DNA of 39,290 nucleotides from positions 1 through 39,290 of the forward strand of contig JAKAJV010000042.1 in the NCBI GenBank assembly GCA_021813585.1. The letters are read 5' to 3'. This DNA is from Bacteroidota bacterium (GTDB lineage Bacteria > Bacteroidota > Ignavibacteria > Ignavibacteriales > Ignavibacteriaceae). The translations under genes and the position numbers were made by a program. The notes below the pieces were generated by a model that saw only the letters and a program-made list of their open reading frames with translations, was not told the DNA's origin and ran no database searches. Positions 6,680-36,070 of the stretch are shown here, in pieces (within the stretch, counting starts at the first letter, position 1; every line of letters starts with the position of its first letter).

Positions 6680-6949
6680 ATGACTGAAGAATTAATTATT
6701 GAAATTTTAAAAGAAGTTTTTTATACGACGTTTATAATTCTGCTGCCTATACTCGGCGTCTCCCTTGTGGTAGGAATTATAATCTCGATCTTTCAGGCGG
6801 CTACTTCAATACAGGAGATGACTTTGACTTTTGTTCCGAAGATTCTAGTAACCGCGGTAACCATAATTTTTATGCTGCCGTGGATGATAGATAAAATAGT
6901 GGCCTTTACCAACAGAATGCTTACAATGTTTATTACCGTTGTGAAATGA
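6680..6949 (+). CDS. fliQ: flagellar export gate protein FliQ
   Basis: FliQ wraps around the FliP-FliR pore. The 89-residue product has the family length and two hydrophobic helices (LLPILGVSLVVGIIISIFQA and VTAVTIIFMLPWMI) joined by the conserved ATSIQEMTLTFVPKI loop. It starts directly after fliP and overlaps fliR by four bases. Confidence 0.97.
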   Translation: MTEELIIEILKEVFYTTFIILLPILGVSLVVGIIISIFQAATSIQEMTLTFVPKILVTAVTIIFMLPWMIDKIVAFTNRMLTMFITVVK

Positions 6950-13162: not shown

Positions 13163-13792
13163 ATGGATAATGCAAACTTGTGGGCAGAATTTAAGAAAGC
13201 CCCGTCTGCAAGCCTTAAAAAGCAAATTATAATGAACTACATAAAGCTGGTTCATTATGTCATTCATAACTCAAAGTTCATTTCCCTGGAATTCCTGGAC
13301 GACAGAGATTATTTCCAATTCGGCGTAGAGGGCCTAAGCGAGGCGATTGACCGGTTTGATCCCGATTACGGCACCAAGTTCGAGACCTACGCCATACAAA
13401 GAATAAGAGGCAAGATTATCGATGAGCTGAGAAAGCTGCAGATAAAGCCAAGACCAGCAACTGCGGAAAAGCACCTGCAGACTGTTTATTCAAACGTATC
13501 GTTAACCAGCCCGGTTGATGATGAAGACGGATATTTGCTGTACGAAATATTACCGGACGAAACCGAAATTCCGGATCAGACTGCAGAGAAAAACGAAGCA
13601 AAGGAATTCCTTGTTGAGGCAATTAAAGCGCTGGAAGAAAGGGACAGGCTTATTATAAGCTTATATTATTATGAAAATTTAAATTATAAAGAGATAGCTA
13701 AGCTGTTGAATATAACCGTATCGAGAGTATCGCAGGTTCACACAAGAATAATAGAAATGTTAAAAACAAAACTGGCTTACTTAAATGAGTAA
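13163..13792 (+). CDS. fliA: flagellar sigma factor FliA (sigma-28), short form
   Basis: Sigma-28 directs RNA polymerase to late flagellar promoters. Region 2 is clear (FLDDRDYFQFGVEGLSEAID, RFDPDYGTKFETYAIQRIRG, KIIDELRKLQ), and so is region 4 (LEERDRLIISLYYYENLNYK, EIAKLLNITVSRVSQVHTRI). The product is only 209 residues; E. coli FliA has 239 and B. subtilis SigD 254. The missing part is between them: after DELRKLQIKPR only a few residues precede VSLTSPV, where region 3 normally has about 45 residues. It overlaps the next gene by 8 bases. A short SigF/B-type factor is the alternative, but the context and region 2 favour FliA. Confidence 0.88.
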   Translation: MDNANLWAEFKKAPSASLKKQIIMNYIKLVHYVIHNSKFISLEFLDDRDYFQFGVEGLSEAIDRFDPDYGTKFETYAIQRIRGKIIDELRKLQIKPRPATAEKHLQTVYSNVSLTSPVDDEDGYLLYEILPDETEIPDQTAEKNEAKEFLVEAIKALEERDRLIISLYYYENLNYKEIAKLLNITVSRVSQVHTRIIEMLKTKLAYLNE

Positions 13793-14663
13793 CTCCCCGG
13801 TAGAAAATATCCAAGAAAAGGCCATCTACATACGGATGCTTTCTAATATAAGGAACCTGCCGTCGGTTCCATTAATAATTTTTGAAGTATCGAAGATGCT
13901 CGGCAACCCCAATACCAGCGCTTCCGATCTGGGCAGGGTTATTGGCCGCGACCAGGGCCTTGTGGCTAAAATTTTAACGGTAGCCAACTCACCGTTATAC
14001 GGACTGCCAAGGAGGGTTGCGACAATCGAGTTTGCCATTGTCATCCTCGGCTTCGATCATATTAAGAATATCGTAATGGCGCTGTCGATGATAGAGGCAT
14101 TTAAAAGGAACGGGGGAACAAACTGGGACAATAAATCGTACTGGAACCACACGCTGTTTACCGCCGCCGCAGCAAAAAGAATTGCCGATGAGATCGGATA
14201 TCCCAAGTCCGGCGAGGTCTTTACCGCCGGGCTGCTTCACGATCTCGGCATTTCAATTATTCAAAGATATTTTAACAAGGAGTTTAATACTATTTGCAGC
14301 CTAGTAGATACCCAGCAGATGAGATACCTTAAGGCCGAAGAGCAGGTTCTCGGTTTAACCCATCAGGAAGTTGGAAAATTTTTAATTAATAAATGGAACT
14401 TGCCCGAAGCGCTTGGAGACGCTATTGCCAATCACCACCATCCGTCTAAATCCGAGAACAACAAAGTTCTGGCTTCTATCATCCATCTTGCTGATTATAT
14501 GACCCAGAGAATAGGTACGGGCTGCTTTTACTGGGACGATGACATGCAGCTGGACGAAAACATAATCGACATCCTAAAGTTCGGCGACGAAAGCAAGCTG
14601 AATGACTTTATCGAAAGTCATACTGAGCTTTTTAAAGGGCAATCCACGGCAACAATTTTTTAG
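13785..14663 (+). CDS. HDOD-domain signalling protein (first of tandem pair)
   Basis: The 292-residue protein is a single HDOD domain (HD-related output domain), cytoplasmic, without membrane helices. Visible motifs: LPSVPLIIFEVSKML, VAKILTVANSPLYGLPRRV, a WNHTLF histidine, LLHDLGISII, NHHHP and SIIHLADYM. Many HDOD proteins have lost the metal ligands of true HD phosphohydrolases; here the H...HD...HH...D residues seem to remain, so a catalytic role is possible. It overlaps fliA by 8 bases and is followed 7 bases later by a close paralogue. HDOD proteins near flagellar genes are usually thought to act in signalling or motility control; the exact role is unknown. Confidence 0.9.
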   Translation: MSNSPVENIQEKAIYIRMLSNIRNLPSVPLIIFEVSKMLGNPNTSASDLGRVIGRDQGLVAKILTVANSPLYGLPRRVATIEFAIVILGFDHIKNIVMALSMIEAFKRNGGTNWDNKSYWNHTLFTAAAAKRIADEIGYPKSGEVFTAGLLHDLGISIIQRYFNKEFNTICSLVDTQQMRYLKAEEQVLGLTHQEVGKFLINKWNLPEALGDAIANHHHPSKSENNKVLASIIHLADYMTQRIGTGCFYWDDDMQLDENIIDILKFGDESKLNDFIESHTELFKGQSTATIF

Positions 14664-14670
14664 AAGAAAC

Positions 14671-15561
14671 ATGAATATGGTAACCTTAGCAACAACATTG
14701 CAGAAAAAAAAGGAAAAGACGGAGCTAATTTTAAGGAACATCTTTAATCTTCCTCCGGTGCCTAAAGCTATTAAAGAGGCGCTGGATTTATTGAGCAGTC
14801 CTAAGACAAACAATTTCCAGCTCTCTCACGTAATATCAACCGACCAGGGGCTGGTTACAAAAATTCTAACCATTGCCAACTCGCCGCTCTACGGCCTGCA
14901 GCGGAAAGTAACGACGATTGATTTTGCCATTCTAGTGCTCGGCTACCATGAGCTGAAAAATATTATCTCCGTACTCTCGATTGTTGAATCGTTTAAGAAT
15001 AAGACCGACCAATACCTTGATCAAAAAGAATTCTGGCTGCATTCCTTTATAACCGGCACCGCATCCAGAAGGCTGGCTGAAGATTTGGATTTCCCGAATG
15101 AAGGTGAGGCCTTTATTACCGGCTTTCTGCACGACATGGGTATCTCGGTCATCCACAGATTTATGCATTCCAGCTTTATTGAAATACACAACCTTGTTAA
15201 CGGCAGCGGAATAAATTACCAGGAAGCCGAGCTGGAAGTTTTAGGAATGACGCACCAGCAAATAGGCTATTACCTCTTTGAAAAATGGAATTTCCCGGAC
15301 CAGGTTTGCGATGTTATTCTTAACCACCACAACCCGGAAAAATCGGCTAACAATAAAATGCTAACTTCCATAATCCATCTTGCGGATTACATGACCCAGA
15401 AGCTGGAAAAAGGAAAATCTTATTGGGATAAAGACATCCAGCTTAACCTTACGGAGCTTTCCAATTTAAGAATAAGGAACCAGGAAGAAGCGGATAAATT
15501 TATAATCGGGTACGAAGAACTGTTTAATAACCAGGTAGAAGCCGTTAGGTATTTAAATTGA
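14671..15561 (+). CDS. HDOD-domain signalling protein (second of tandem pair)
   Basis: This is a paralogue of the preceding gene across its whole length: LPPVPKAIKEALDLL, VTKILTIANSPLYGLQRKV, FLHDMGISVIHRFM, NHHNPEKSANNKML and SIIHLADYMTQ match position by position. The frame is open further upstream (to 14602), but the ATG at 14671, seven bases after the preceding stop and behind AGAAGAAAC, fits the paralogue's N-terminus. The product is 296 residues with no membrane segment. The HD-type residues are kept as in its partner. It overlaps the kinase-like gene that follows by four bases (TTGA), so the three genes are probably made together. Confidence 0.9.
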   Translation: MNMVTLATTLQKKKEKTELILRNIFNLPPVPKAIKEALDLLSSPKTNNFQLSHVISTDQGLVTKILTIANSPLYGLQRKVTTIDFAILVLGYHELKNIISVLSIVESFKNKTDQYLDQKEFWLHSFITGTASRRLAEDLDFPNEGEAFITGFLHDMGISVIHRFMHSSFIEIHNLVNGSGINYQEAELEVLGMTHQQIGYYLFEKWNFPDQVCDVILNHHNPEKSANNKMLTSIIHLADYMTQKLEKGKSYWDKDIQLNLTELSNLRIRNQEEADKFIIGYEELFNNQVEAVRYLN

Positions 15562-16865
15562 GAATAATAAAAAATAACACTTTAAGGTACGAAGCATTTC
15601 ACAAAACGCTTCCTTCAATTTCCAGAGGCAGGCTGTCTTCCGCCGGGCTTGCATTGCAGGATGGATATAAGGAAGAGATACCCGGTGCCTTGAATAAAGA
15701 GTATGACTCTTCCGTAAAAATTCTTGAGTTTGCCAGGAACATAAAAAGCCTGAACAGCATAAGTGCGGTTGAAGAGAGTTTAAAGCTTCTGCTTAATGAG
15801 CTAATGGGCGTTAAAGAGACCGCTTTATTCTTTTTTAATGAAAACCAAACTTCGCTTATTCCCGTTTCTCCAAATACTTCATCAAGATCAAAATACTTTG
15901 TTAATAACAGCCTTATGTCCGGAGCGCTGAACGGCATATTTGAAACCGGGACCCACAAAATAATTTTGGATTCATTAGTCTATAATATCGACGGGACAAA
16001 ATCTTATTACTTAATTGTTCCTTTTACCGGCGGGGCAAATGAAAAAGGCGTGCTTTTAACCTTGATGCCTTTCTCCTTAACTGAAGGCTCCGGCGAAATT
16101 ACATTGATAAAAGTATGCCTTGAGATGTTCCTGAACAAGCTGGAGGTAATAGGCAGGCAGGAAGAGCTTAAGAGCGCATATAACGAACTTCAGGTGTATC
16201 AGTCGAAGCTGACAAACGATTACAAGCTGTCCGCCATCGGAGAGCTTACCTCCGGTATTGTTGAAGACGTTCTTTCTCCTTTGCAGGTAATATTAAGCAG
16301 CACGGAGTTCTTAAAAAAGGAGGATTCCGCTGCTGATGAAAAAGTGCTTGATACAATAAACCAGCAGGTAAAAAAGGTAAAGACGGTTATTAACCGACTT
16401 GTAAAGTTTGCCGGCACTGCGGATTCTAAAAATAAAATTTATCCGTGCAGCATTAACAAAGCAATAAACGATTTCTATCAGATGTTCAGCTCTTCTCTTA
16501 AGAACGATAATTACGAATGCGTGCTCGACCTTGAGGATAACATCCCCTCGGTGCTTACAAATCCTAATTATATAAACCAGATTTTGACGAATATCTTTTT
16601 TCTTATAAAGGCGGGCGGCAGCAAGGCTGGTGGTATTTTAATACAGACAAGGTATGCGAGCGAGAAGATTGTGGTAAAATTTTTGTCTACCGATTACTTT
16701 GAAGAGCTTGACAACGATACGTTAAATCCTGCCCGGGACGTTAATTTGAAGATAATAAAAAATCTTATGCTTCAGCATCAAGGCGAAATTAAATTCGACT
16801 CAAACAAGAGCAGGGGAACTGTAATAACATTATCATTCCCTTTAAAAAGGAACATTATAAGATGA
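15558..16865 (+). CDS. histidine-kinase-like protein lacking the phospho-acceptor His (pseudo-kinase)
   Basis: The 435-residue soluble protein starts with TTG inside the preceding stop. Residues ~55-195 look like a GAF-type sensor (KETALFFFNENQTSLIPVSP ... LIVPFTGGANEKGVLLTLMP), then a coiled linker, a DHp-like region and an HATPase-like region. In the H-box GELTSGIVEDVLSPLQ, residue 236 is Glu where AHE normally has His. The N-box (TNIFFLIKAGG) lacks the Asn of the usual NA pair, and the DxGxG box is replaced by VVKFLSTDYFEEL; only SRGTVITLSFPL at the end is kept. It should therefore neither bind ATP normally nor autophosphorylate. A scaffold or sensor role for HDOD or kinase partners is inference. 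Confidence 0.82.
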   Translation: MRIIKNNTLRYEAFHKTLPSISRGRLSSAGLALQDGYKEEIPGALNKEYDSSVKILEFARNIKSLNSISAVEESLKLLLNELMGVKETALFFFNENQTSLIPVSPNTSSRSKYFVNNSLMSGALNGIFETGTHKIILDSLVYNIDGTKSYYLIVPFTGGANEKGVLLTLMPFSLTEGSGEITLIKVCLEMFLNKLEVIGRQEELKSAYNELQVYQSKLTNDYKLSAIGELTSGIVEDVLSPLQVILSSTEFLKKEDSAADEKVLDTINQQVKKVKTVINRLVKFAGTADSKNKIYPCSINKAINDFYQMFSSSLKNDNYECVLDLEDNIPSVLTNPNYINQILTNIFFLIKAGGSKAGGILIQTRYASEKIVVKFLSTDYFEELDNDTLNPARDVNLKIIKNLMLQHQGEIKFDSNKSRGTVITLSFPLKRNIIR

Positions 16866-24226: not shown

Positions 24227-25483
24227 ATGAGAATTTCAGATTTAATGAGAAGCAACGATTTTTTGTACAACTTAAATGCTACAAAGAATAAGCTTAACGA
24301 TTTGCAGACTCAAGTAGCTACCGGGAATCAAATTCAGCAGCCTTCCGATTCCCCCAGCGGTACAGTTAGCATACTGGGCTGGAACAGCCAGATTAACCAG
24401 GCCAATACTATTATGAGCAATATAGACAGCGGGCTTTCATTTGTTAACGATTCTACCCAGTCGCTGCAGAATATTCAAGATGAAATTACAAATGTCCAGT
24501 CGAAACTAACTCAGGTTCAAAACGCTGCCAACAACCAGGACTTAAGCAACTTTGCAGATCAGATCGATTCATCGCTATCGCTCATTCTAGACAGCGCCAA
24601 CACGCAGTCAGACGGTAAGTATGTTTTTGCAGGCACCGACTTTACTGCCGCTCCTTTCGGATATACTTCCGACGGCAAATCAATTGAAGTTAAAGACGGC
24701 AATATATCCGGCACGCAGAGTATCCGAATCTCTCCGGATGTAGCGCAGCAAATAAACCTTAGCGGCACGGATGTGTTCGGCACTATTATTAAAGGCGGGG
24801 GTAACATCGATTCCGGCACTGCAGTCGGCGCAACGGTTACGGCACAAACGAACGTATACGACTCAAAAGGGAACCAGTATACTTTTAAATTGAATTTTAC
24901 AAAGACCGCGGCAGATACTTATGATTTTACATATGATATAGTGGACAGCAGCAATACTTCAGTGTTGTCGTCGCCTCCGGCCGCTCAGTCGATGGTATTC
25001 GACAGCTCGACAGGCTACCTGCAGACGGTTGACGGGAAGTCCCCGTCATTAACTCATATTACGGTGCCTTCAAGCAACATCGATTTTAATTTTGATCCTT
25101 CGTCCTTAACCGAAAATAACGCATCATCTTCACTTACGTTTACCGCAAACCAGAAGACAGATATATTCAATACTCTTATAAATATTAGAGACAACTTAAG
25201 GAACGGTATTAAGCCTACAACCGACCAGATGCAGGCTGTTTCCGATTTTAACAGCCGCTTGATGGATAACCTAACTCAGGCCGGCAATATTGCAAACCGG
25301 CTTACAAACTCGAAGGATTTAATGAACAATAAAACGCTGCAGCTTCAGGACCTGGTTTCAAAAACCCAGGGAATAGACGTGGCAAAAGCCGTAGTCGATT
25401 TGCAGAACCAGGATTATCTTCTTCAAATGTCTTATAAATTGGCGTCAACAGTTTTAACAACATCTATATTAAACTACCTATGA
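24227..25483 (+). CDS. flgL: hook-filament junction protein FlgL (HAP3)
   Basis: FlgL is the second junction protein, next to the filament, and belongs to the flagellin fold. The 418-residue product starts MRISDLMRSNDFLYNLNATK, NKLNDLQTQVATGNQIQQPS, DSPSGTVSILGW, with the usual GKYVFAGTDFTAAPF segment near residue 130. The C-terminal flagellin-type helix is present (LQDLVSKTQGIDVAKAVVDL, QNQDYLLQMSYKLASTVL). It is longer than E. coli FlgL (317) because of a middle beta-rich insertion at about residues 190-310. The stop overlaps the motA start (ATGA). Confidence 0.95.
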   Translation: MRISDLMRSNDFLYNLNATKNKLNDLQTQVATGNQIQQPSDSPSGTVSILGWNSQINQANTIMSNIDSGLSFVNDSTQSLQNIQDEITNVQSKLTQVQNAANNQDLSNFADQIDSSLSLILDSANTQSDGKYVFAGTDFTAAPFGYTSDGKSIEVKDGNISGTQSIRISPDVAQQINLSGTDVFGTIIKGGGNIDSGTAVGATVTAQTNVYDSKGNQYTFKLNFTKTAADTYDFTYDIVDSSNTSVLSSPPAAQSMVFDSSTGYLQTVDGKSPSLTHITVPSSNIDFNFDPSSLTENNASSSLTFTANQKTDIFNTLINIRDNLRNGIKPTTDQMQAVSDFNSRLMDNLTQAGNIANRLTNSKDLMNNKTLQLQDLVSKTQGIDVAKAVVDLQNQDYLLQMSYKLASTVLTTSILNYL

Positions 25484-26256
25484 TAAGAAAAGCCGGTACA
25501 GTTATAGGATTATTATTAGGTATACTTTCAATATTCGGCGCATTCTTTATGGAAGGCGGCGCCTTTGAAGCCTTATTCTTAATCCCGCCGCTTATCATCG
25601 TATTCGGCGGAACTTTCTCGGCTGTAATTATAGGCTTCGGGTTCGATAAGTTTAAGAACATTTGGCATCTTATAAAATTAGCGTACTTCCCTGCAAAATA
25701 TAATTTGAAGGACCTTATAAATAATTTGGTAGAATTTTCGATAATATCTAGAAAAGAAGGCCTTCTGGCAATTGAGAAGAGACTTTACCGGTTGAATTAT
25801 TTATTCCCCCAGAAGCTGATTAAATATGCGATTGACGGAACCGATACGGATTCGCTTCAGAACCTGGCATCGCTTGAAATGAAGGCAATGCAGGAAAGGC
25901 ATTACTCGAACATTTTTATTTTTACTAAGATGGGCGGGTATGCACCCACGATGGGAATAATAGGCACGGTAATGGGATTGATAATGACTCTTGCCAATGC
26001 GGGCGGAGATCCCAACTCGTTAATCAAGAACATAGCTTCGGCATTTATAGCAACCCTTTGGGGTGTATTCAGCGCTAATATTTTATGGCTACCAATTGGT
26101 GATAAGTTAAAAAAATGTCATTTGGAAGAAAAACACATGATGGAGATTTCTCTGGAAGGTACCTTGGCTCTGCAGAGCGGGGAGATACCTTCGGTGGTCA
26201 AGGCAAGGCTTATAAGTCTGCTGCCCCAAAGAGAACAAATAAAAATGATGATCTGA
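25480..26256 (+). CDS. motA: flagellar stator protein MotA (first stator pair)
   Basis: MotA forms the pentameric ring of the ion-driven stator. The 258-residue protein has four membrane helices: two near the N-terminus (GLLLGILSIFGAFF, FLIPPLIIVFGGTFSAVIIG) and two after residue 145 (GGYAPTMGIIGTVMGLIMTL, FIATLWGVFSANILWLPIG). The cytoplasmic loop contains RKEGLLAIEKRL. The C-terminus EGTLALQSGEIPSVVKARL is the usual MotA end. It is of the compact MotA/PomA type and differs clearly from the second MotA at 28307. Confidence 0.94.
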   Translation: MIRKAGTVIGLLLGILSIFGAFFMEGGAFEALFLIPPLIIVFGGTFSAVIIGFGFDKFKNIWHLIKLAYFPAKYNLKDLINNLVEFSIISRKEGLLAIEKRLYRLNYLFPQKLIKYAIDGTDTDSLQNLASLEMKAMQERHYSNIFIFTKMGGYAPTMGIIGTVMGLIMTLANAGGDPNSLIKNIASAFIATLWGVFSANILWLPIGDKLKKCHLEEKHMMEISLEGTLALQSGEIPSVVKARLISLLPQREQIKMMI

Positions 26257-26930
26257 CCGACCCCGAAGAATCGCCGTTCCACGAGAGCGGTGAAAAGGAC
26301 AGGTATCTTATTACCTACGCGGATTTGATAACTTTGTTGCTGGGGCTCTTTATAATTTTGTACGCTATTTCGAACATAGATGCTCACAAGTACGAGAAAA
26401 TGATCTCGGCAATGGGCAATGTTTTCGGGAATCATGAAAAGCTGATAGACCTTAAAGCCGGCTTGCCTAAAGCAGGCGGAGGCAAGGATGATCTTTTAAG
26501 AAACAAGCTGACCGAGCTTATTGATAAATACCATTACAACCAATCGATAAGGCTCGAAGAAAATGAAAGAGGCATAACCATTCACATTCTTGACGATATC
26601 CTGTTCGGCTCAGGCAGTGCTAATTTAACCGGCGGCTCGCTGCTGGTGCTTAACAGGCTGGCCTCAATTATTAAAGAGCTGCCGAATGATATAAGAGTAG
26701 AAGGACATACAGACGACGTACCGATAAATACTGCGGCATTTCCTTCTAACTGGCATCTTTCGGTTGCAAGGGCCCTAAACACGGCTTATTATCTTATTCA
26801 CAATGAAGGACTGAACCCTGAGAAGGTTTCAATTGTAGGCTATTCGGAGTACAAGCCGATGGACTCCAACAGTACTGCCGAAGGAAGAGCAATTAACAGA
26901 AGAGTAGACATTGTTATAATAAAAAAGTGA
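26253..26930 (+). CDS. motB: flagellar stator protein MotB (first stator pair); start uncertain, possibly CTG
   Basis: MotB anchors the stator to peptidoglycan and carries the ion-binding Asp. Visible are one membrane helix with TYADLITLLLGLFIILYAIS (the Asp is in YAD) and a C-terminal OmpA-like domain (VEGHTDDVPINTAAFPSNWH, LSVARALNTAYYL, GRAINRRVDIVI). The only in-frame ATG is at 26115, which would put 142 bases inside motA and add a 46-residue non-family tail. A CTG at 26253 shares CTGA with the motA stop and would give a 225-residue protein with a normal ~15-residue N-terminus. I place the start there with modest confidence. Confidence 0.88.
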   Translation: MTDPEESPFHESGEKDRYLITYADLITLLLGLFIILYAISNIDAHKYEKMISAMGNVFGNHEKLIDLKAGLPKAGGGKDDLLRNKLTELIDKYHYNQSIRLEENERGITIHILDDILFGSGSANLTGGSLLVLNRLASIIKELPNDIRVEGHTDDVPINTAAFPSNWHLSVARALNTAYYLIHNEGLNPEKVSIVGYSEYKPMDSNSTAEGRAINRRVDIVIIKK

Positions 26931-26935
26931 TTTAT

Positions 26936-27316
26936 ATGAAAGTTAAAACCAATCAATTCGGCCAAGTAGAATACAGCCCGGAACATATTATTAAGTTTCA
27001 TTCCGGCATATTCGGTTTTGAGCAGTTAAAGAATTACCTGCTTATCAAAATAGATGACGACTTTTTTTACTGGCTTAATTCGATAGACGAGCCGGAGATA
27101 GCCTTTCCGCTGGTAGGCGTAAGGGTAATTGACGACAACTATCCCGCTGAAGAAGGCCATGAGCCTTTTGGGATTGTAACATTGAACCACGAGCCTTTAA
27201 AAACAACGGTTAATTTGAAAGCCCCTGTATTTATAAATCAAACTACAAAGACGGGCTTCCAAACAATTTTGGATACGGACAAGTACCCGATTAAATATTT
27301 TTTATTTAAAGAATGA
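26936..27316 (+). CDS. fliW: flagellar assembly factor FliW (CsrA antagonist)
   Basis: FliW binds flagellin and CsrA; when flagellin is exported, FliW sequesters CsrA and flagellin translation is relieved (known from B. subtilis and Campylobacter). The product (126 residues from ATG 26936) shows the family pattern: VKTNQFGQVEYSPEHIIKF, SGIFGFEQLKNYLLI, FYWLNSIDEPEIAFPLVG and a C-terminal LKAPVFINQTTKTGFQTIL. A GTG at 26927 overlapping the motB stop is also possible, but MKVKT is the usual start. csrA follows 16 bases later. Confidence 0.94.
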   Translation: MKVKTNQFGQVEYSPEHIIKFHSGIFGFEQLKNYLLIKIDDDFFYWLNSIDEPEIAFPLVGVRVIDDNYPAEEGHEPFGIVTLNHEPLKTTVNLKAPVFINQTTKTGFQTILDTDKYPIKYFLFKE

Positions 27317-27332: not shown

Positions 27333-27590
27333 ATGTTGATATTAACAAGAAAAACAGACGAAGAAATAAAGATCGGCCCCGAGATTACAATAAAGATACT
27401 TGCAATTTCGGAAGGACAGGTTAAGCTTGGGTTTTCGGCGCCCGCAGACGTCAAAATTTTCCGGGGCGAGATATACGAAAATGTTAAAGAGGTTACTATC
27501 GAAGCTTCCATCTTAAGCCGCAGTAAAATGCCGGCCGATCTGTCTAAATTGAAGCTAAACAAAATTAGGAAGATAGATAATGAAGGATGA
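27333..27590 (+). CDS. csrA: carbon storage / translational regulator CsrA
   Basis: CsrA is a dimeric RNA-binding protein that represses translation at GGA motifs. The 85-residue product begins MLILTRKTDEEIKIGPEITI, KILAISEGQVKLGFSAPADV and has the RGEIYE motif near residue 46. The C-terminal ~30 residues extend beyond the ~61-residue enterobacterial form, as in FliW-linked CsrA proteins. It lies directly after fliW, the common pair, and overlaps the next gene by 11 bases. Confidence 0.96.
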   Translation: MLILTRKTDEEIKIGPEITIKILAISEGQVKLGFSAPADVKIFRGEIYENVKEVTIEASILSRSKMPADLSKLKLNKIRKIDNEG

Positions 27591-28305
27591 AGATAATAAA
27601 ATCACCATTCTTATTGTGGACGATTCGGACATAATCCGCTACTCGCTTAAGAATTTCTTCAGCGATTACGAAATAGAGGTTATAACAAGCCACGACGGGC
27701 TGGACGGCATTCAGAAAGTTGTTGAGTATAAGCCGGCATTAATTTTTCTTGACTTGATGATGCCGAATTTTGACGGCGTAAAAATGCTGCAGGTAATTAA
27801 AGTGCTTGACGGGCATAAATCAGTTCCTGTTATAGTAATAAGCGGGAACACAAACAGGTCCAACGTTCTGGCTGCTATTGAAGCCGGCGCAGAGAGGGTG
27901 ATTTCCAAACCGTTGAAGAAGGAAATAATAATTAAGAATATTAACGAGCTGCTAGGCGAGGATTTTCTGGCCAAGCTGAAAAAGAAAAAAATGTTTTCCT
28001 CCTCCGAAAAGGATGACATTAGGAAGCAGCTTTCGCTTATGTTCTTAAAAAGCTTCCCCGCTAAAAGAGAAACGATAATTAATGGCTTAAGGAAAAACGA
28101 CAAGGAAGCCATCCGCATCGTTGCCCACGAAATAAGAGGAGCGGGCGGCGCTATCGGCTACCCTAAGCTTAGCGTTCTATGCGGGGTTATCGAAGACCAG
28201 GTCTCAGGTACAAACATTAACTGGGAACAAATAAAATTAATGTGCGATCAAATTTTTACGTTCGTGGAAGAAATAGAAGAATCAAATTCATTTATAGAAG
28301 AGTAA
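27580..28305 (+). CDS. response regulator with receiver and HPt domains
   Basis: The 241-residue soluble protein has a receiver domain (residues ~8-125) with an acidic pair in ILIVDDSD, phospho-acceptor Asp58 in IFLDLMMPNFDG, a VISG switch and Lys in RVISKPLKK. The C-terminal ~90 residues look like a histidine phosphotransfer (HPt) domain: AHEIRGAGGAIGYPKLSVLC with candidate phospho-His183. A REC-HPt protein can receive and pass on phosphate but has no output domain, so it is probably a phosphorelay step. It overlaps csrA and is two bases upstream of the second motA. Confidence 0.86.
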   Translation: MKDEDNKITILIVDDSDIIRYSLKNFFSDYEIEVITSHDGLDGIQKVVEYKPALIFLDLMMPNFDGVKMLQVIKVLDGHKSVPVIVISGNTNRSNVLAAIEAGAERVISKPLKKEIIIKNINELLGEDFLAKLKKKKMFSSSEKDDIRKQLSLMFLKSFPAKRETIINGLRKNDKEAIRIVAHEIRGAGGAIGYPKLSVLCGVIEDQVSGTNINWEQIKLMCDQIFTFVEEIEESNSFIEE

Positions 28306-28306
28306 T

Positions 28307-29161
28307 ATGTTTGTAATAATCGGTTTAGTTGTCGTTATTGTTGCTATAATAGCCGGTTTTTTAATTGCCGGGGGAAATCTCGTACTGCTTTTACAGTGGT
28401 CGGAGTTTTTAACTATAGGCGGTGCCGCAATAGGCAGCGTGCTTATCTCATCGCCTCTTTCGCTTCTTAAAAAAATTATCGCCGAGCTGCCAAAGGCTAT
28501 CTCGCCCGATCATTTTACAAAAAAAGATTACCTGGAACTGCTTAAATCCTTTAACGAGCTTTTCCTTGTTGCGCAGAGAGACGGCCTGCTTGCAATAGAG
28601 AAGCACATTGAAAATCCCAAGGAGAGCAGTATACTTTCAGTGAACAAGAAATTTGTTCAGAACGAAATGCTGAGGAATTTTTTCGCCGATACTATGAAGG
28701 TAATGCTTTCCGGCGGGGTTCCCCCGCACGAGCTGGAAGACCTTATCGATACGGAAATAGAAACTTTCGAGATCGAATCGAAACCCGTGCCTGCATCGCT
28801 TTCAAGAGTAGGGGACTCCTTACCCGGGCTGGGTATTGTTGCCGCAGTACTGGGAATTATTGTAACCATGGCTTCTATTGATAAAGGCGCCGAAGTGGTA
28901 GGCCACCATGTAGCGGCAGCTCTGGTGGGAACATTTTTGGGCGTGCTGCTTTCATACGGGTTTGTCAATCCCCTTGCCGCAAACATAGAGCATAATATTG
29001 AAAACAAGATTAGAGTCTTACAGACGATAAAGGCGTGTATAGTTGCCTACGCCAAAGGCAACCCGCCGGTTATTGCTGTAGAGATAGCGAGGAGAACCAT
29101 TTTCTCCGACGAGAGACCGACCTTTTCTGAACTGGAAAACTATGTGAGAGGAAAAAGCTAA
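28307..29161 (+). CDS. motA: flagellar stator protein MotA (second stator pair)
   Basis: This 284-residue MotA is of the longer, E. coli-like type: MFVIIGLVVVIVAIIAGFLI and GGNLVLLLQWSEFLTIGGAA at the start, then a large cytoplasmic loop (LLAIEKHIENPKESSIL), and the second helix pair with SRVGDSLPGLGIVAAVLGII and AALVGTFLGVLLSYGFVNPL. The C-terminus ACIVAYAKGNPPVIAVEIAR fits the family. It is followed two bases later by its own motB and shows only limited resemblance to the MotA at 25480, so it is a separate stator lineage rather than a recent duplication. Confidence 0.94.
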   Translation: MFVIIGLVVVIVAIIAGFLIAGGNLVLLLQWSEFLTIGGAAIGSVLISSPLSLLKKIIAELPKAISPDHFTKKDYLELLKSFNELFLVAQRDGLLAIEKHIENPKESSILSVNKKFVQNEMLRNFFADTMKVMLSGGVPPHELEDLIDTEIETFEIESKPVPASLSRVGDSLPGLGIVAAVLGIIVTMASIDKGAEVVGHHVAAALVGTFLGVLLSYGFVNPLAANIEHNIENKIRVLQTIKACIVAYAKGNPPVIAVEIARRTIFSDERPTFSELENYVRGKS

Positions 29162-29163
29162 TA

Positions 29164-29937
29164 ATGTCTAACGGCGGCGATCTTCCTCCGAGGATAATTA
29201 AGAAGATTAATAAGCACAGCGGGCATCACGGCGGCGCATGGAAAGTTGCTTATGCAGACTTTGTAACCGCTATGATGGCTTTGTTTATTGTGCTGTGGGT
29301 ATTAAGCCAATCGCAAAAAGTGCAGCAGATGGTTGCACATTATTTTCAGGATCCTATTGGCTTTTCCAATGGCGGTAAAAATATTTTAAATAGCAACGGT
29401 TCTTCAATGCCGGATAATACAAAGCTTCCTAATTTACAGATGACACGCATAAGGGAAATGGAATTACTGAAAACAATGGGCGATAAAATTCTTGGCGAGC
29501 TTTCGCAGGACCCCACTTTTAAAAATATTGTCGGCCAAATTAAAATTGAATTTGTTAAGGAAGGATTGAAGATTGAGATAGTAGATTCGGCAAGGGATTT
29601 ATTCTTTGAGATAGGCACAGCAAAACTGACGAAGGAGGCAGAGCTTCTATTGCTTAAGATAGGCAACCAGCTTGCAAAGCTGCCCAATAAAATTATTGTA
29701 GAAGGCCACACGGACGCGCGTCCTTATCCGGGCGGCCCGGCAGGCTATACAAATTTTGAACTGAGCGCCGACAGGGCAAATTCCGCCAGGCGCGCACTTA
29801 CTGCAGGCAACCTGCCGGATAAGCAGATTGACCAGGTTAGAGGATATGCAGACAGAAGGCTGCGCGACCCTGCCGATCCTTTCAGCTTTGTTAACAGAAG
29901 AATTAGCATAATAGTTAAATATTCGGATAATAAATAA
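29164..29937 (+). CDS. motB: flagellar stator protein MotB (second stator pair)
   Basis: The 257-residue product has the E. coli-like MotB pattern: HHGGAWKVAYADFVTAMMAL and FIVLWVLSQSQ, with the ion-carrying Asp in YAD, then a plug/linker and an OmpA-like peptidoglycan-binding domain (IIVEGHTDARPYPGGPAG, FELSADRANSARRAL, DPFSFVNRRISIIV). The YADFVTAMMA form differs from YADLITLLLG in the first MotB. It forms a unit with the motA just upstream and abuts the receiver gene at 29937 by one base. Confidence 0.95.
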   Translation: MSNGGDLPPRIIKKINKHSGHHGGAWKVAYADFVTAMMALFIVLWVLSQSQKVQQMVAHYFQDPIGFSNGGKNILNSNGSSMPDNTKLPNLQMTRIREMELLKTMGDKILGELSQDPTFKNIVGQIKIEFVKEGLKIEIVDSARDLFFEIGTAKLTKEAELLLLKIGNQLAKLPNKIIVEGHTDARPYPGGPAGYTNFELSADRANSARRALTAGNLPDKQIDQVRGYADRRLRDPADPFSFVNRRISIIVKYSDNK

Positions 29938-30329
29938 TGAAAAATATTCTTATTGTTGAAGACGACCCGTTTACTATTGATTTTTACAACTTCATCTTTA
30001 AAAGAGCCGGGTACAACCCCATCGTTCAGGAAGAAGGCGATAAGATCTTTGAAATTCTGGCCGAAGATAATATTGATCTTATTATCATGGATATAAATTT
30101 AAAGAATACTTATCTTAGCGGTCAGAAAATAGACGGGATTAGACTTTCCGGCATAATTAAGCAGAAGGACGGAATTTCTCACCCGCCCATTTTACTTGTT
30201 ACTGCTTATTCACCTAACGTTAAAGAAGGTGATTTCTTAAAAGAAAGCTTGGCGGATGATTTTATTACTAAGCCGATAATAGATTTTAATCAATTAATAA
30301 AAAAAGTAAACGGGCTTATTAAAAATTGA
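29937..30329 (+). CDS. stand-alone receiver-domain protein (CheY/DivK-like)
   Basis: The 130-residue product is a single receiver domain: ILIVEDDPFTIDFYN with the acidic pair, Asp52 in LIIMDINLKN, LLVTAYS with the switch Thr, and FITKPII with the conserved Lys. There is no output domain, so it should act by binding, like CheY on FliM or DivK on kinases. FliM here keeps its CheY-binding segment, which makes the motor a possible target, but no cheA is in view. It overlaps motB by one base and the next gene by four (TTGA). Confidence 0.88.
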   Translation: MKNILIVEDDPFTIDFYNFIFKRAGYNPIVQEEGDKIFEILAEDNIDLIIMDINLKNTYLSGQKIDGIRLSGIIKQKDGISHPPILLVTAYSPNVKEGDFLKESLADDFITKPIIDFNQLIKKVNGLIKN

Positions 30330-30979
30330 ACAAGAATAAAATTCTTATTGTTGAAGACGAAAAAGATACGCTGTTTATACTTGACAAGCTGTTGACAAAA
30401 AATGATTATCAGGTGTATACTTCTTCCAACGGGCAGGACGCACTTAACATTCTGAACGAGGTTATTCCCGAAGTTATTATTGCCGATTGGACCATGCCGG
30501 TAATGGACGGTCTTGAGCTGTGCAATATTATTAAGAAGGACGAAAAGTTTAAGCTCATTTATTTTATCATTCTTACTGCAAGGGCGTCGTTAAAGGACCG
30601 GGTAGCCGGGCTGGATATAGGCGCAGACGACTTTCTGGTTAAGCCGGTGCAGAACCAGGAACTGCTCGCCAGGATAAGGTCCGGCATAAGGATACATAAC
30701 CTGCAGAACGAGCTGAAAAATATTGAGCACAACAAGGCACTTATCGAAATGGCCTGCACTATCGGGCATAAAATAAACAACCCGTTAAGCAGCCTGCTTG
30801 TCTCGGTTAAAAATATTGAAGACGAGCTGGGGGACAAAAAGAACACATTCGAGGAAGAGCTTTTAATTATCAACGAATCGATTGAAAGAATTAAAACTCT
30901 GGCCAACGACCTTACTCACCTGCAGAATCCGCAAATTATTAATTACTCTTCGGATAATAAAATGCTTAAACTGGATTAG
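30326..30979 (+). CDS. receiver domain fused to a DHp histidine helix, no kinase domain
   Basis: The 217-residue protein starts with TTG inside the previous stop. Residues ~4-120 are a receiver with ILIVEDEKD, Asp54 in IIADWTMPVMDG, ILTARAS and DDFLVKPV. A coiled linker leads to an H-box, MACTIGHKINNPLSSLLVSV, with His148 in the normal AHEIxNPL position, and a second helix (IINESIERIKTLANDLTHL). The protein ends there: no N, G1 or G2 box follows and the stop is not near any longer matching frame. It may therefore be a phosphotransfer dimer (Spo0B/ChpT-like logic) rather than a kinase. Confidence 0.85.
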   Translation: MNKNKILIVEDEKDTLFILDKLLTKNDYQVYTSSNGQDALNILNEVIPEVIIADWTMPVMDGLELCNIIKKDEKFKLIYFIILTARASLKDRVAGLDIGADDFLVKPVQNQELLARIRSGIRIHNLQNELKNIEHNKALIEMACTIGHKINNPLSSLLVSVKNIEDELGDKKNTFEEELLIINESIERIKTLANDLTHLQNPQIINYSSDNKMLKLD

Positions 30980-31026
30980 CCCGCTTAACTTATTACCATA
31001 TTTCTTCGATTATAAGTTGAGGAAAT

Positions 31027-31692
31027 ATGCGTATGCTGGAAAAAATTAATAACATATCGGCAGGCAGCGACTTTACAAAGGCCGTTCGCTCGTCCAACAT
31101 CGGCTCTGTACTAAGCTCCGCCTACACAAGGAAAGTTGACGCGCACGATTCGGTAGATATATCGCCCGCATTCAAGTTCCTTAACAGCGTTAACTGGAAG
31201 CTGAAGGAGTTTAAGCATATCGTAAATGAAAAATTATATCTCGCTTTTATTCTTTCCGGCGTAGAGTTCCGCACGGTTATCGATCTTGTGAACTTTGAAA
31301 AGCTAAGCCTGCTTAATTACACCGTGCTTAAGGAAACCAAAAAAGGCAAGTCGGCTTTCAGAATGACCACCGATCTTTCGGTAAGGATAGAGAGGCCCGA
31401 CTACGAAGCCGGGCCGGTGCTTATTAATTTTTCGGCATTGAATGTGTTCTTTCAAAGGGCTTTCGGCCTGAACATGTTCCGGGAGATTACCAGGGAAGAA
31501 AAATACCTGTTCGACGACCTGCTGCAGGGCATCTCATTCGGCATTAAGGAAGAGTTCCTCCGCCTGAACAACCATATACTCATCTTTATGGATAAGCTAA
31601 CAGGTCTAAAAGTTAGCAGGCAAGAGGTTCCCACAAAAGATTACGGTGAAACAGTAGTTATTAAAAAATTTAAAGTGCTTCATGTTGAATAA
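31027..31692 (+). CDS. unknown cytoplasmic protein between receiver proteins and PAS kinase
   Basis: The 221-residue product has no signal peptide, no membrane helix and no family I can name. The N-terminal ~55 residues are polar and probably flexible, ending in DSVDISPAFKFLNSVNWKLK; 'DSVxxS' followed by a helix is seen in FlgM-type anti-sigma factors, which is a weak hint only. The rest is mixed alpha/beta (FRTVIDLVNFEKLSLLNYTV; REITREEKYLFDDLLQGISF). A 47-base gap with GAGGAAAT before the ATG precedes it, and it overlaps the kinase gene by 11 bases, so it is likely made with the kinase. Confidence 0.7.
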   Translation: MRMLEKINNISAGSDFTKAVRSSNIGSVLSSAYTRKVDAHDSVDISPAFKFLNSVNWKLKEFKHIVNEKLYLAFILSGVEFRTVIDLVNFEKLSLLNYTVLKETKKGKSAFRMTTDLSVRIERPDYEAGPVLINFSALNVFFQRAFGLNMFREITREEKYLFDDLLQGISFGIKEEFLRLNNHILIFMDKLTGLKVSRQEVPTKDYGETVVIKKFKVLHVE

Positions 31693-33559
31693 TTTTTCGC
31701 AGAACAGCTTAACTGGCAAGAAGAACTATATTTCTCTCGAGGAGTTCGAAGAGTTCTACCAGCTCCCGGAGAGCAGTCCGCTTATTATCGTAGATATCCT
31801 TTGCAGTATTATCTATTCTAACGAATCATTCAGGAAGACATTCAATGCGGGCAGCCTTAAGTTTTTCGATTTGAATACGGAGCCGGACCTGCGCTACTTA
31901 ATTACATCCCTCATCGGCAGCAACTATAACAACTTCCAGTTCGATCTTTTTTTCCCGGAAGAAGCCGGGCTGGAGAGCGGATTTAACGTAGAGGCCGAAA
32001 GAATCTATATCGGCGGGCAGGAATACTTCGTGCTTATATTCAAAACCCTTAAGGAAAAGGCAAAGCTGGAGGAAAGAATTAATAACCTGCACAATGCTTT
32101 GGAGTTTGGTAAAATACCGGTTATTATTACAGACGAGCAGGGCACTATAATTTATGCAACCTCTTCATTCGAAAAAATATTAAAGTCGGGCATAGAGCAG
32201 TTCTATAAAAGCTCGCTTGCCGATGCATTATCTTTCTATCTCTCCAACGAAGACAGAAGGGTAATGAACGAATCGATACGCGGCAAGAAGATTTGGACGA
32301 AAACAATTTCGTGCGTTGAAGAAACCGGCGCCGTCTCATACTACGAGCTTAAGCTCAATCCGGTTTCAAGAAGCGAGAGCGACATGCTGAACTTTATTGT
32401 TACCGCCAACGATATAACAAACTACATACTGAAAAACTTATACGTTAAAAAATCGGAGAGAAGGCTTAAGTCAATAATCAACAACATCTCCGACCTGCTG
32501 TTTATTATTAGGGAAAAGGAAGGAGCTTACCTGTTTGAGAACGCTAACGATAATTTCTGCAAAATATTCTCGGTTAACAAGGCGTTTTCTTTAAAGAAGA
32601 ATATAAGTCAAATTCTAGAAGAGAACCTGTTAAACCGGATTGCTCAGGCCATTGGGAAAGATAACCCGCATACCGGCTCGTTTATCGAAATCAATTACAA
32701 CAGCCCGGGCGGCAGGCACTACGGCGTAAAAATTTCCAGCATTGAAGACCAGCTTGAGGAGGAAATAATTTATATCGTTAGCATGAAGGATATAACAGAC
32801 CAGGTGCTCTACCAGGAGCAGTTAAAGGTTGCCTACGAAAAGGAGATTAACCTGAACAAGCTGAAGACCGCATTCCTGGAAAACATATCCCACGAGATAC
32901 GCACGCCGCTGAACGCAATTGTAGGCTATTCGGAAATTATAGACGACTGTATAGAAGAGCATGACTTTGATACCATAAGGGAATTAATTTCCTCATTTAA
33001 AGATGTTCTTAACCGGGTGCTAAACTTATACGGCAATATAGTTGAAGTCTTCCAGATAGACTCCGGCGAGATTGAACTTGAAATGGTTACACTTAACGCC
33101 AACCAGGTGCTTAATTCGGTTTACAACAAGCGGCTTGATGAAGCGGTAAAGAAAAATCTTAACTTTAAGCTTAAGGCAGATGAAAGGGAACTTAACATAA
33201 AAATTGATTGGGTTAAGTTCGAAAGGATTATAAGCTCGCTCGTGGATAATGCAATTAAGTATACCGACTTCGGCGATGTGATAATTACATCTGCAAAGGT
33301 AAACGGCAATGTGCAGATAAAAATTTCGGATACAGGCAGGGGAATAAAGTCGAAAGATGTGTTAAGGCTTTATGAGCCTTTTGTACAGGATGAAGAGGCG
33401 TACACCCGCAGTTATGAGGGCGCCGGGCTGGGCCTGACCATTGCATATAAACTAACTCTGCTTATGGGCGGAAGGTTCGACATCAGCAGCGAAGAAAACA
33501 TCGGTACAAATATTATCCTATCCTTCCCGCTTGCAGAACCAGTTCACAGCATGGCATAA
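31682..33559 (+). CDS. PAS-domain sensor histidine kinase, cytoplasmic
   Basis: The 625-residue protein has no membrane segment. After ~25 residues come PAS-like modules (about 25-120, 135-250 and 255-375; for example IITDEQGTIIYATSSFEKIL and LLFIIREKEGAYLFENANDN). The kinase core is intact: H-box LENISHEIRTPLNAIVGYS with His404, N-box SSLVDNAIKYTDFGDV, G1 ISDTGRGI, F/G2 YEGAGLGLTIAYKL and GTNIILSFPL. It has no fused receiver, so its partner must be separate; the REC, REC-HPt and REC-DHp proteins upstream are candidates. It is the last gene of the flagellar cluster. Confidence 0.93.
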   Translation: MLNNFSQNSLTGKKNYISLEEFEEFYQLPESSPLIIVDILCSIIYSNESFRKTFNAGSLKFFDLNTEPDLRYLITSLIGSNYNNFQFDLFFPEEAGLESGFNVEAERIYIGGQEYFVLIFKTLKEKAKLEERINNLHNALEFGKIPVIITDEQGTIIYATSSFEKILKSGIEQFYKSSLADALSFYLSNEDRRVMNESIRGKKIWTKTISCVEETGAVSYYELKLNPVSRSESDMLNFIVTANDITNYILKNLYVKKSERRLKSIINNISDLLFIIREKEGAYLFENANDNFCKIFSVNKAFSLKKNISQILEENLLNRIAQAIGKDNPHTGSFIEINYNSPGGRHYGVKISSIEDQLEEEIIYIVSMKDITDQVLYQEQLKVAYEKEINLNKLKTAFLENISHEIRTPLNAIVGYSEIIDDCIEEHDFDTIRELISSFKDVLNRVLNLYGNIVEVFQIDSGEIELEMVTLNANQVLNSVYNKRLDEAVKKNLNFKLKADERELNIKIDWVKFERIISSLVDNAIKYTDFGDVIITSAKVNGNVQIKISDTGRGIKSKDVLRLYEPFVQDEEAYTRSYEGAGLGLTIAYKLTLLMGGRFDISSEENIGTNIILSFPLAEPVHSMA

Positions 33560-34999: not shown

Positions 35000-36070
35000 A
35001 TGAAAGCTTGTTTTTTTGTGGTAACAATATTATTTTTTACATCTATTCAAATGATATATCCACAAAGTATTTGGTTTGACTCTCCATCAGAAGGTCAGGT
35101 AATAACCAATATCAATGGCGCCACAACGCGAAATTATTCTTATACTGTTGCAAATAATGATAACGGCGCAACTATATCTTCGGATATGAGAAAAATATTA
35201 AGTTTAACTTGTCAAAATTACATGGTTGGTTTAGGAGATATAGGAGTTGTGAATGTAAATAATTCTCAATATACCGCTCCTTATCTAAATAGTAATGTAA
35301 TTGAAGGTGATCAAATTACATTAACAGCGCCCACTCAAACCGTAAATGGGATAAGATACGATTTCAATCAATGGAATGATGGCTCCGCATCTTCCAGTAA
35401 AACATTTGTTGCATCGGATGATGCTATTTATACAGCTTATTATACCGGCACTCCTTCAAAAGCAAACTTTAATTTTGGATTTGATCAGGTAGTAGGCCAG
35501 CCTATAAAAATGCACTGGACGGATAATGTTAACCCGAATGTTACATATCAAATTTGGAGAACTTACAAGGGCGATCCTGTTGGCCCCACTGAAATAGCCA
35601 CTGTTCAAAGAGGAGTGCAGACTTACACAGATTATGATTATACTTTTACTAGCACATATACTGATAAACTTCTTTATTATGATGTAAGAGAGTATTATTC
35701 TGTAGAAGGAACAACTTCAGACCCTGCTTGGGAAGCAGTATACGGTTCAGGCGGTGGAATAACGCCTAAAGCGTCTGTCTCGCCAGACAGCATAATGTCC
35801 GGTGAAATAAAAGATTATTCACTTGCTTGTTATCCTAATCCTTTCAATCCGTCAACCACTATTAATTTCCAACTTCCCAAAGATGGCTTTGTTGCCTTAA
35901 AAGTATTTGATATAGTAGGCAATGAAGTAAAAACTCTGGTAAACGGTTACCGCGCGGCTGGCAATTACTCTGTTAATTTTGATGCCTCAAACTTATCAAG
36001 CGGAATTTATTTTTACCAAATAAAAACAAATAATTATTTTGCCGTTAAAAAGATGATGCTGCTGAAATAA
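35000..36070 (+). CDS. T9SS-secreted protein with C-terminal sorting domain
   Basis: The 356-residue protein has a Sec signal peptide (MKACFFVVTILFFTSIQMIY, cut near PQS). The middle contains a module ending RYDFNQWNDGSASSSKTFVA and IYTAYYTG, a 'TAxY' beta module seen in many surface proteins, then a fibronectin-III-like stretch (QPIKMHWTDNVNPNVTYQIW). The last ~80 residues are the type A T9SS sorting domain: CYPNPFNPSTTINFQLP, VFDIVGNEVKTLVNGY, SSGIYFYQIKT, AVKKMMLLK. A strong Shine-Dalgarno (TTGGAGG) precedes the ATG. No enzyme motif is visible; a surface or adhesive role is a guess. Confidence 0.85.
   Translation: MKACFFVVTILFFTSIQMIYPQSIWFDSPSEGQVITNINGATTRNYSYTVANNDNGATISSDMRKILSLTCQNYMVGLGDIGVVNVNNSQYTAPYLNSNVIEGDQITLTAPTQTVNGIRYDFNQWNDGSASSSKTFVASDDAIYTAYYTGTPSKANFNFGFDQVVGQPIKMHWTDNVNPNVTYQIWRTYKGDPVGPTEIATVQRGVQTYTDYDYTFTSTYTDKLLYYDVREYYSVEGTTSDPAWEAVYGSGGGITPKASVSPDSIMSGEIKDYSLACYPNPFNPSTTINFQLPKDGFVALKVFDIVGNEVKTLVNGYRAAGNYSVNFDASNLSSGIYFYQIKTNNYFAVKKMMLLK

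What the first reader, a model, noticed from the sequence alone, without database searches (positions are those of the whole stretch)
27580..33559. A scattered phosphorelay inside the flagellar cluster without chemotaxis kinase genes
The locus encodes one intact kinase (His404), a REC-DHp protein with no ATPase (His148, Asp54), a REC-HPt protein (His183, Asp58) and a lone REC (Asp52). Together these are all steps of a His-Asp-His-Asp relay, but no DNA-binding output and no cheA/cheW are present. The output may be the motor (FliM) or stator choice. I know of no described system with this set; together with the pseudo-kinase/HDOD block it is the best candidate here for a new system.
Basis: partly seen in the sequence, partly recalled or inferred. 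Interest (0 to 1): 0.62.

Follow-up and report, generated by a model that had tools for sequence, protein, structure and literature searches.

The report
Second phosphorelay wired into flagellar regulon
A set of signalling proteins that could pass phosphate along a chain sits inside the flagellar gene cluster of an Ignavibacteria bacterium, is kept together by nearly all of the flagellated relatives examined, and seems to get its kinase only once the late flagellar switch is on; what it finally controls is unknown.

Summary
The anatomy is real. REC-HPt (D58/H183), lone REC (D52), REC-DHp (D54/H148, no ATPase) and a complete PAS-PAS kinase (H404) lie in the array csrA-[REC-HPt]-motA-motB-[REC]-[REC-DHp]-orf-kinase. 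'No chemotaxis kinase' is true of this contig only: CheA, CheZ and CheY-like genes lie on another. New here: (1) in a non-flagellated family, lone REC and REC-DHp persist in an operon with a FliA/WhiG-type sigma factor and an HDOD protein, so the motor is not the obligatory output; (2) a sigma28-like site, like the one before the che operon, precedes orf-kinase in 28 of 31 loci and lies inside a covarying hairpin predicted to hide the ribosome site. Best reading: an accessory relay whose kinase is gated by FliA. Phosphate route and output are inferred. New variant of a known kind.

The parts
27580..28305 (+). REC-HPt protein (241 aa), D58 and H183; its start overlaps csrA
   Evidence: Pfam Response_reg 84.4 bits, Hpt 34.2 bits; sites
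28307..29161 (+). MotA stator protein
   Evidence: NCBIfam MotA1 335.8 bits, cut-off 303.8
29164..29937 (+). MotB stator protein
   Evidence: Pfam MotB_plug and OmpA
29937..30329 (+). lone receiver (REC, 130 aa), D52, with a stretch NLKNTYLxGxKIDG after the Asp
   Evidence: Pfam; alignment A3
30326..30979 (+). REC-DHp (217 aa, TTG start), D54 and H148, no ATPase domain, conserved C-terminal tail (Y207, M213 invariant)
   Evidence: Pfam Response_reg 93 bits, HisKA 29.2 bits; alignment A1; model pLDDT 88.1
30983..31014 (+). sigma28-like promoter site (TTAA-N16-TTCGATTATA)
   Evidence: only hit of the site matrix in the window, though this site was one of the 27 the matrix was built from; a site in 28 of 31 related loci
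30994..31033 (+). predicted hairpin covering the ribosome-binding site and reaching the start codon of the next gene, with the -10 element in its 5' arm and loop
   Evidence: window z -4.6; covariation
31027..31692 (+). fast-evolving 221-aa protein of unknown fold; the conserved start is probably the second ATG, 31033 (MLEKI)
   Evidence: no Pfam or NCBIfam match; no significant PDB match
31682..33559 (+). histidine kinase PAS-PAS-HisKA-HATPase (625 aa), H404
   Evidence: Pfam
26927..27316 (+). FliW
   Evidence: Pfam 86.1 bits
27333..27590 (+). CsrA
   Evidence: TIGR00202 76.9 bits, cut-off 70.1
13163..13792 (+). FliA/WhiG-type sigma factor
   Evidence: Pfam; best NCBIfam matches WhiG and FliA_WhiG, below their cut-offs
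13785..14663 (+). HDOD protein 1
14602..15561 (+). HDOD protein 2
15558..16865 (+). pseudo-kinase; the phospho-acceptor His position holds E236
   Evidence: HisKA 23.8 bits (cut-off 26.9), no HATPase match; that column reads E22 D4 N2 and G, Q, T, H once each in 32 readable rows

Best explanation
An accessory multistep phosphorelay of the Ignavibacteria flagellar regulon, separate from the CheA system that the same genome carries. SHOWN by sequence: the four proteins have all His/Asp stations; they are conserved and their genes are tightly packed; orf-kinase stands apart behind a sigma28-like site of the kind that also precedes the che operon; that site lies in a hairpin predicted to mask the ribosome site on RNA read through from upstream. 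INFERRED: the kinase is made only from FliA transcripts, which would start beyond the 5' arm and leave the ribosome site open, that is after hook completion. The kinase phosphorylates itself at H404 and passes phosphate to a receiver (D58 of REC-HPt or D52 of the lone REC). REC-HPt moves it to H183 and on to the lone REC. REC-DHp cannot make its own phosphate; at H148 it exchanges phosphate with, or removes it from, its gene partner, the lone REC, tuned by its own D54. The end product, lone REC~P with REC-DHp, acts by protein contact, most likely on the sigma28/HDOD/pseudo-kinase node rather than only on FliM or the stator. My odds: accessory FliA-coupled relay about 0.65; sigma28-node output about 0.35.
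For: Phyletic match to flagella, 39 of 40 against 0 of 19; conserved order and sites and tight packing. Site upstream of orf-kinase in 28 of 31 loci; the same kind of site upstream of the che operon in G000 and G056, a FlgM-like gene in G000 and cheW in G056. Hairpin: mean z -2.8 over 26 loci, 15 below -2, against means of -0.3 to +0.6 and at most 2 loci below -2 at each of 13 other genes; arms pair better within a locus than between loci, 0 of 2000 permutations; covariation score 0.335 against 0.236, 0 of 500 shuffles. Sigma-HDOD-(kinase-like)-REC-REC-DHp operon without flagella; its REC-DHp groups with the flagellar one, support 97/92. G038's REC-DHp has moved beside a second FliA/WhiG-type gene. 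Joint decay in G024: no CheA or CheW, lone REC gone, H404 changed to Ile, only one HDOD.
Against: No phosphotransfer was measured and no effector domain was found. motA-motB lie between REC-HPt and REC, which favours a motor role, and the joint loss of chemotaxis and relay in G024 also fits a behavioural output. G056 has an HPt half cut off by stop codons, so that step is not universal. No kinase hit beside the operon in G040, G042, G049, which have CheA, nor in G032, which has none (not sought elsewhere). REC-HPt is in only 10 of 28 FlhA+ genomes examined outside the order. Weak FlgM-like proteins exist, so a new sigma28 control is not required. The exact promoter pattern is enriched over its reversed control in G000 (11 against 1) and G056 (12 against 1) but hardly in flagellate G030 (2 against 0), and some hits lie inside genes. 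No site was found in the f13 loci scanned or in f13 genome G104. RNAalifold found no structure on the ungapped alignment, and one of five covariation measures, the number of pairs with a change on both sides, is no better than shuffles (8 against 8.0).
Confidence: 0.5

Rival explanations
1. Motor or stator control: lone REC~P acts as a second CheY-like protein on FliM or on MotAB, so that the kinase sets speed, switching or stator choice.
For: motA-motB are sandwiched between REC-HPt and REC; the site before orf-kinase resembles that of the che operon; two stator pairs are present; FliM begins with LSQQEIDLLL, a CheY-binding motif by recall; G024 lost CheA/CheW, lone REC and the kinase His together.
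Against: Lone REC and REC-DHp are kept in family f13, where FlhA is absent in 6 of 6 genomes; the che cluster has its own two single-receiver genes; in four f10 flagellar clusters REC-HPt and a REC follow csrA with no motAB there.
Confidence: 0.27
2. REC-DHp is mainly a phosphatase or phosphate sink for the lone REC, not a relay step; the working path is kinase to REC-HPt to lone REC, and REC-DHp switches it off.
For: H+4 Asn, linked to phosphatase activity in HisKA kinases by recall, is invariant, while the H+1 acid is lost; no ATPase domain; REC and REC-DHp are always neighbours in the 32 loci that show both.
Against: An invariant phospho-acceptor His (34 of 34) fits transfer at least as well; homologues in f10, f18 and f19 keep the H+1 Glu though they too lack an ATPase domain in the two scanned.
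Confidence: 0.3
3. No joint pathway: ordinary two-component genes that happened to settle in a long conserved operon; REC-DHp and the pseudo-kinase are decaying kinases.
For: 99 receiver-domain matches in this genome make accidental neighbours easy; family identity beyond REC/HisKA/Hpt is weak.
Against: REC-DHp is the best conserved of the set (mean column identity 67%) with invariant His and Asp; the same pair recurs outside flagellar clusters in f13 and f18.
Confidence: 0.12
4. The hairpin is the functional element (for example a CsrA or other RNA switch) and the resemblance of its top to a sigma28 -10 site is secondary.
For: Strong covarying stem over the ribosome site; csrA is encoded in the same cluster and the masked strand contains GGA.
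Against: The -35-like T-A-A block upstream of the stem is also conserved (26, 26 and 25 of 27 sites), and the same bipartite site lies before che, cheW and FlgM-like genes at 31-138 nt from their starts.
Confidence: 0.25

Closest known systems
Spo0F-Spo0B, CckA-ChpT and SdrG-PhyT relays (dimeric histidine phosphotransferases derived from kinases; passages of PMC5898713 and PMC9981736 seen)
   Same: A single receiver paired with a kinase-derived DHp protein that has a His but no working ATPase; SdrG-PhyT even ends on a sigma-factor switch.
   Different: Here the DHp protein carries its own receiver and has no degenerate ATPase domain at all; the set lies in a flagellar operon; no DNA-binding or sigma-mimic end point was found.
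HptB-HsbR-HsbA-FlgM pathway of Pseudomonas aeruginosa (passages of PMC5085249 seen)
   Same: An HPt-based relay encoded beside flagellar genes that reaches sigma28 and motility.
   Different: No STAS or PP2C-type partner-switch protein among the 30 window proteins scanned with Pfam.
CheA-CheY chemotaxis
   Same: Kinase unit with a sigma28-like site as before the che operon; lone receiver.
   Different: Kinase is a PAS-PAS-HisKA protein without CheW or CheA dimerisation domains; the genome has CheA as well.
Late promoters inside ribosome-site hairpins, as in phage T4 genes e and soc (recalled, no call)
   Same: Read-through RNA would be folded shut; RNA started at the inner promoter would lack the 5' arm.
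   Different: Here in a bacterial flagellar operon with a sigma28-like site; prediction only.

Membership tests
His-Asp-His-Asp phosphorelay | complete histidine kinase | tested here: met
   HisKA 46.5 and HATPase_c 80.9 bits, H404
His-Asp-His-Asp phosphorelay | intermediate receiver with Asp and a second His (HPt or DHp) | tested here: met
   REC-HPt and REC-DHp sites conserved; HPt cut off in G056
His-Asp-His-Asp phosphorelay | phosphate passes along these proteins | not testable with these tools
   needs 32P or Phos-tag assays
His-Asp-His-Asp phosphorelay | terminal regulator with a known effector | tested here: inconclusive
   the end receiver has no output domain
Dimeric histidine phosphotransferase (Spo0B/ChpT/PhyT type) | DHp hairpin with acceptor His | tested here: met
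   H148 in 34 of 34; HisKA match; helical C-terminal half in the model
Dimeric histidine phosphotransferase (Spo0B/ChpT/PhyT type) | degenerate ATPase-like domain after the DHp | tested here: not met
   chain ends about 20 residues after the DHp with a short strand pair
CheA chemotaxis pathway | CheA and CheW in the locus | tested here: not met
   none in the window; both elsewhere in the genome
HptB-HsbR-HsbA partner switch | HsbR-type PP2C regulator and STAS protein | tested here: not met
   no such Pfam match among the 30 window proteins scanned; the rest of the genome was not searched for them
sigma28 (FliA) promoter | TAAA-like -35 and CGATAA-like -10 with 15-16 nt between | tested here: met
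   matrix of 27 sites; consensus compared with a recalled FliA consensus
sigma28 (FliA) promoter | FliA-dependent transcript start | not testable with these tools
   needs 5' end mapping

The most novel reading that the evidence does not exclude
Ignavibacteria carry a motor-independent phosphorelay cassette (single REC plus REC-DHp) tied to FliA/WhiG-type sigma factors, which outlives the loss of flagella; in flagellates a kinase was added whose synthesis is locked to FliA by a promoter placed inside a ribosome-hiding hairpin, so the relay reports that the hook is finished and then adjusts sigma28 output.
Probability: 0.3. Interest if true: 0.75.

Novelty: new variant of a known kind. Interest (0 to 1): 0.55.

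Why it matters
Flagellar control outside the standard model bacteria is little explored. A second relay, separate from CheA and conserved across an order, would show that the motility regulon there has another input, and a promoter buried in a translation-blocking hairpin would explain how one gene pair inside a long operon can be kept strictly late. A receiver fused to a DHp with no ATPase domain is also a compact natural test case for how kinases turn into phosphotransferases or phosphatases.

Tried and rejected
Rejected: 'module replaces FlgM' (weak FlgM-like proteins exist; over the cut-off in 3 of 59 genomes, below it in G000). Rejected: 'REC-DHp is a kinase broken in this genome' (same length and no ATPase domain in relatives). 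A search of the window with the GCCGATA form of the sigma28 box gave 2 matches, chance level (2 or more in 4 of 100 shuffles); the TTCGATWAT form came from the spacer alignment. A CTCAA/TTGAG inverted repeat across the whole site was tested and occurs in only 12 of 29 loci; the hairpin that matters is the inner one. No usable fold for the 221-aa protein: Foldseek best E 0.043, VIA best Z 5.6 (3qv0, rmsd 5.1, 112 aligned), below the noise level that the tool gives; families not listed are not excluded; Pfam gave only single-member matches, best E 0.022. PDB comparison of REC-DHp covers the receiver only. No papers beyond listings and passages were read; I. album genome paper is not held.

Limits of the counts: gene starts in my scripts are the most upstream ATG/GTG/TTG, which inflates overlaps. 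Hairpin z values use letter shuffles, the transcript start was assumed 6 nt after the CGATWAT box, the start codon was misassigned in at least L033 and L036, and two of 28 loci were dropped as too short. Permutations and shuffles ignore kinship. Ten of eleven control gene ends had the CGATWAT box in 0 to 3 of 32-36 loci, but the end of motA had it in 12 of 35. Locus L072 (G046) was fetched and not analysed; G007 had only a short contig. HK counts include one doubtful row (L064).
Full report
What is there. The window is a whole contig (C11) of a draft genome. Loci that encode close relatives of its REC-DHp come from Ignavibacteria records, e.g. Melioribacteraceae, Melioribacter, Ignavibacterium and the named strain Stygiobacter electus 09-Me (best 80 of a capped list; 37 loci at 56-78% identity, then a drop to receiver-only matches at 43% or less).

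Co-conservation. Among 59 genomes of the own order (own included) 40 have FlhA. REC-HPt orthologues (E 2.8e-54 or better) are in 39 of these 40 and in 0 of the 19 without FlhA, whose best matches are about 1e-16. The exception, G035, still has REC-DHp followed by the 221-aa protein at a contig end. I fetched 36 of the other 38 for neighbourhood analysis: REC-HPt is beside csrA in 36 of 36, REC found in 34, REC-DHp in 33, the 221-aa protein in 31, the kinase in 30. Two loci end at a contig border (L035, L041); REC is truly missing in G024; in G038 REC-DHp has moved to another contig. Sites are as given in the observation check. The spacing of csrA/REC-HPt, motB/REC and REC/REC-DHp is mostly negative (27 of 36, 26 of 34, 26 of 32 overlapping), with the caveat that my starts are the most upstream ones. 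The upstream block FliA-HDOD-HDOD-pseudo-kinase was found in 27 of the 29 further stretches fetched; G024 has a single HDOD, and in G057 both HDOD genes match HDOD1 best.

Chemotaxis is present. One CheA-type match on C39, CheZ, two single receivers and a CheB-like receiver protein stand beside flgB/flgC/fliE-type genes (flagellar names there by position and recall). So the window lacks cheA because the supercluster is split between contigs in this genome; in G056, G051, G041, G004 and others CheA is about 20 kb before FlhA. REC-HPt, REC-DHp and their neighbours remain in two good assemblies without CheA: G032 (REC kept, no kinase beside the operon) and G024 (REC lost, kinase His changed to Ile).

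The non-flagellated cassette. REC-DHp-like proteins occur in 93 of 294 genomes of the class at E 1e-40 (paralogues included) and 51 of 395 sampled from the phylum. In family f13 none of 6 genomes has FlhA and 1 of 6 has CheA, yet 5 of 5 readable loci show sigma-HDOD-(430-438 aa)-REC-REC-DHp; the sixth contig begins just before REC. The sigma factors of three of them, and the second one of G038, are best matched by WhiG and FliA/WhiG models, below the cut-offs. The 430-438 aa protein is like the pseudo-kinase by position; BLAST similarity was seen in 2 of 5, Pfam gives nothing for the two scanned, and it keeps a His in a HSLKN/HDLKN motif in the four read. In the tree the f13 and flagellar REC-DHp form one group (97/92) against those of f10, f18 and f19. 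In f18 the order is large hybrid kinase-REC-REC-DHp in three loci; in f10 a kinase gene precedes REC-DHp in two. In four f10 flagellar clusters csrA is followed by REC-HPt and a REC without motAB, and in G143 REC-HPt-motA-motB is followed by a REC-HD protein and hybrid kinases with a lone REC between them. Of 28 FlhA+ genomes outside the order (chosen mostly because they have REC-DHp-like proteins), 10 have REC-HPt: 9 of 10 in f10 and G143.

The promoter and the hairpin. REC-DHp and the 221-aa gene are separated by about 50 nt. That gap holds TNAA-N15/16-TTCGATWAT. The box CGATWAT lies within 90 nt after the REC-DHp stop in 27 of 34 loci, window included (letter shuffles: mean 0.6, largest 3), and upstream of the 221-aa gene in 28 of 31 (not L056, L057, L063). 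A matrix of the 27 sites finds in the window only the training site, and in the che contig stretch one new site, 63 nt before the HEAT-repeat gene that heads the che operon; one site in L070, none in L071, the five f13 loci, or L195, L224, L226. The exact N15 pattern, which does not fit the window's own N16 site, gives 11 matches in G000 (reversed control 1), 12 in G056 (1), 2 in G030 (0), and in three non-flagellated genomes 1 (0), 1 (3), 0 (1). Eight of the 11 in G000 and 7 of the 12 in G056 lie up to 350 nt before an ORF; they include the che operon in both, a FlgM-like gene (18.9 bits, below the cut-off) in G000, cheW and the 221-aa gene in G056; the others lie mostly inside genes.

The same stretch folds: over 26 loci the start region has mean z -2.8 (15 below -2), while 13 other genes have means from -0.3 to +0.6 and at most 2 such loci each; the ribosome-site stretch is unpaired with mean probability 0.24 in read-through RNA and 0.60 in RNA begun after the site. 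Arms from one locus pair better than arms swapped between loci (10.6 against 9.6 of 13; 0 of 2000). With the register of the window 71.5% of cells pair (64.7% in shuffles, 0 of 500), the covariation score is 0.335 (0.236, 0 of 500), and sliding the partner lowers both; but the count of pairs with a change on both sides is not raised (8 against 8.0). Loop length differs between loci, which is why RNAalifold found nothing on the ungapped alignment. Reading: the -10 element is in the 5' arm and loop, so RNA started there lacks the 5' arm. This is like phage T4 late genes (recalled), and would keep the kinase strictly late.

How it most likely works and what is open. See Best explanation and rivals. 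Direction of flow, role of REC-DHp (transfer or phosphatase) and output are inferred. The strongest argument against a purely motor output is the f13 operon; the strongest for a motor or behavioural one is the place of motAB and the joint loss in G024. Literature seen: passages of PMC3534657 (M. roseus described as having flagellar motility), PMC5085249, PMC5898713, PMC9981736; listings otherwise.

Noticed in passing
window 30983-31033: sigma28-like promoter placed inside a covarying hairpin that masks the ribosome site of the following gene; conserved in most relatives. Could be a general device for late genes in long operons.
   Followed up: yes
L226 (G143) 6216-7406: In G143 the gene after motB is a receiver fused to an HD_5 domain (c-di-GMP phosphodiesterase type by recall), in the place where the order has REC.
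   Followed up: partly
G023:C84, G040:C1, G042:C3, G044:C118: Second, more distant REC-HPt-like copies in four flagellates (E 1e-45 to 3e-37; those of G040 and G042 with one stop inside).
   Followed up: no
L245 1600-1920 and L242 1117-1458: Short similar proteins (106 and 113 aa, no Pfam match) follow the sigma28-like site in both G000 and G056.
   Followed up: no
L199, L201 and similar f19 loci: In f19 genomes a REC-DHp homologue follows a long gene; the one scanned is an NFACT/RqcH-type protein, an odd pairing.
   Followed up: no
window 25480-26930 and 28307-29937: Two stator gene pairs in one flagellar operon; the first is nearest MotD-type, the second MotA1/MotB-type.
   Followed up: no
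window 1960-3363 and 35000-36070: Proteins with type IX secretion sorting tails flank the flagellar genes.
   Followed up: no
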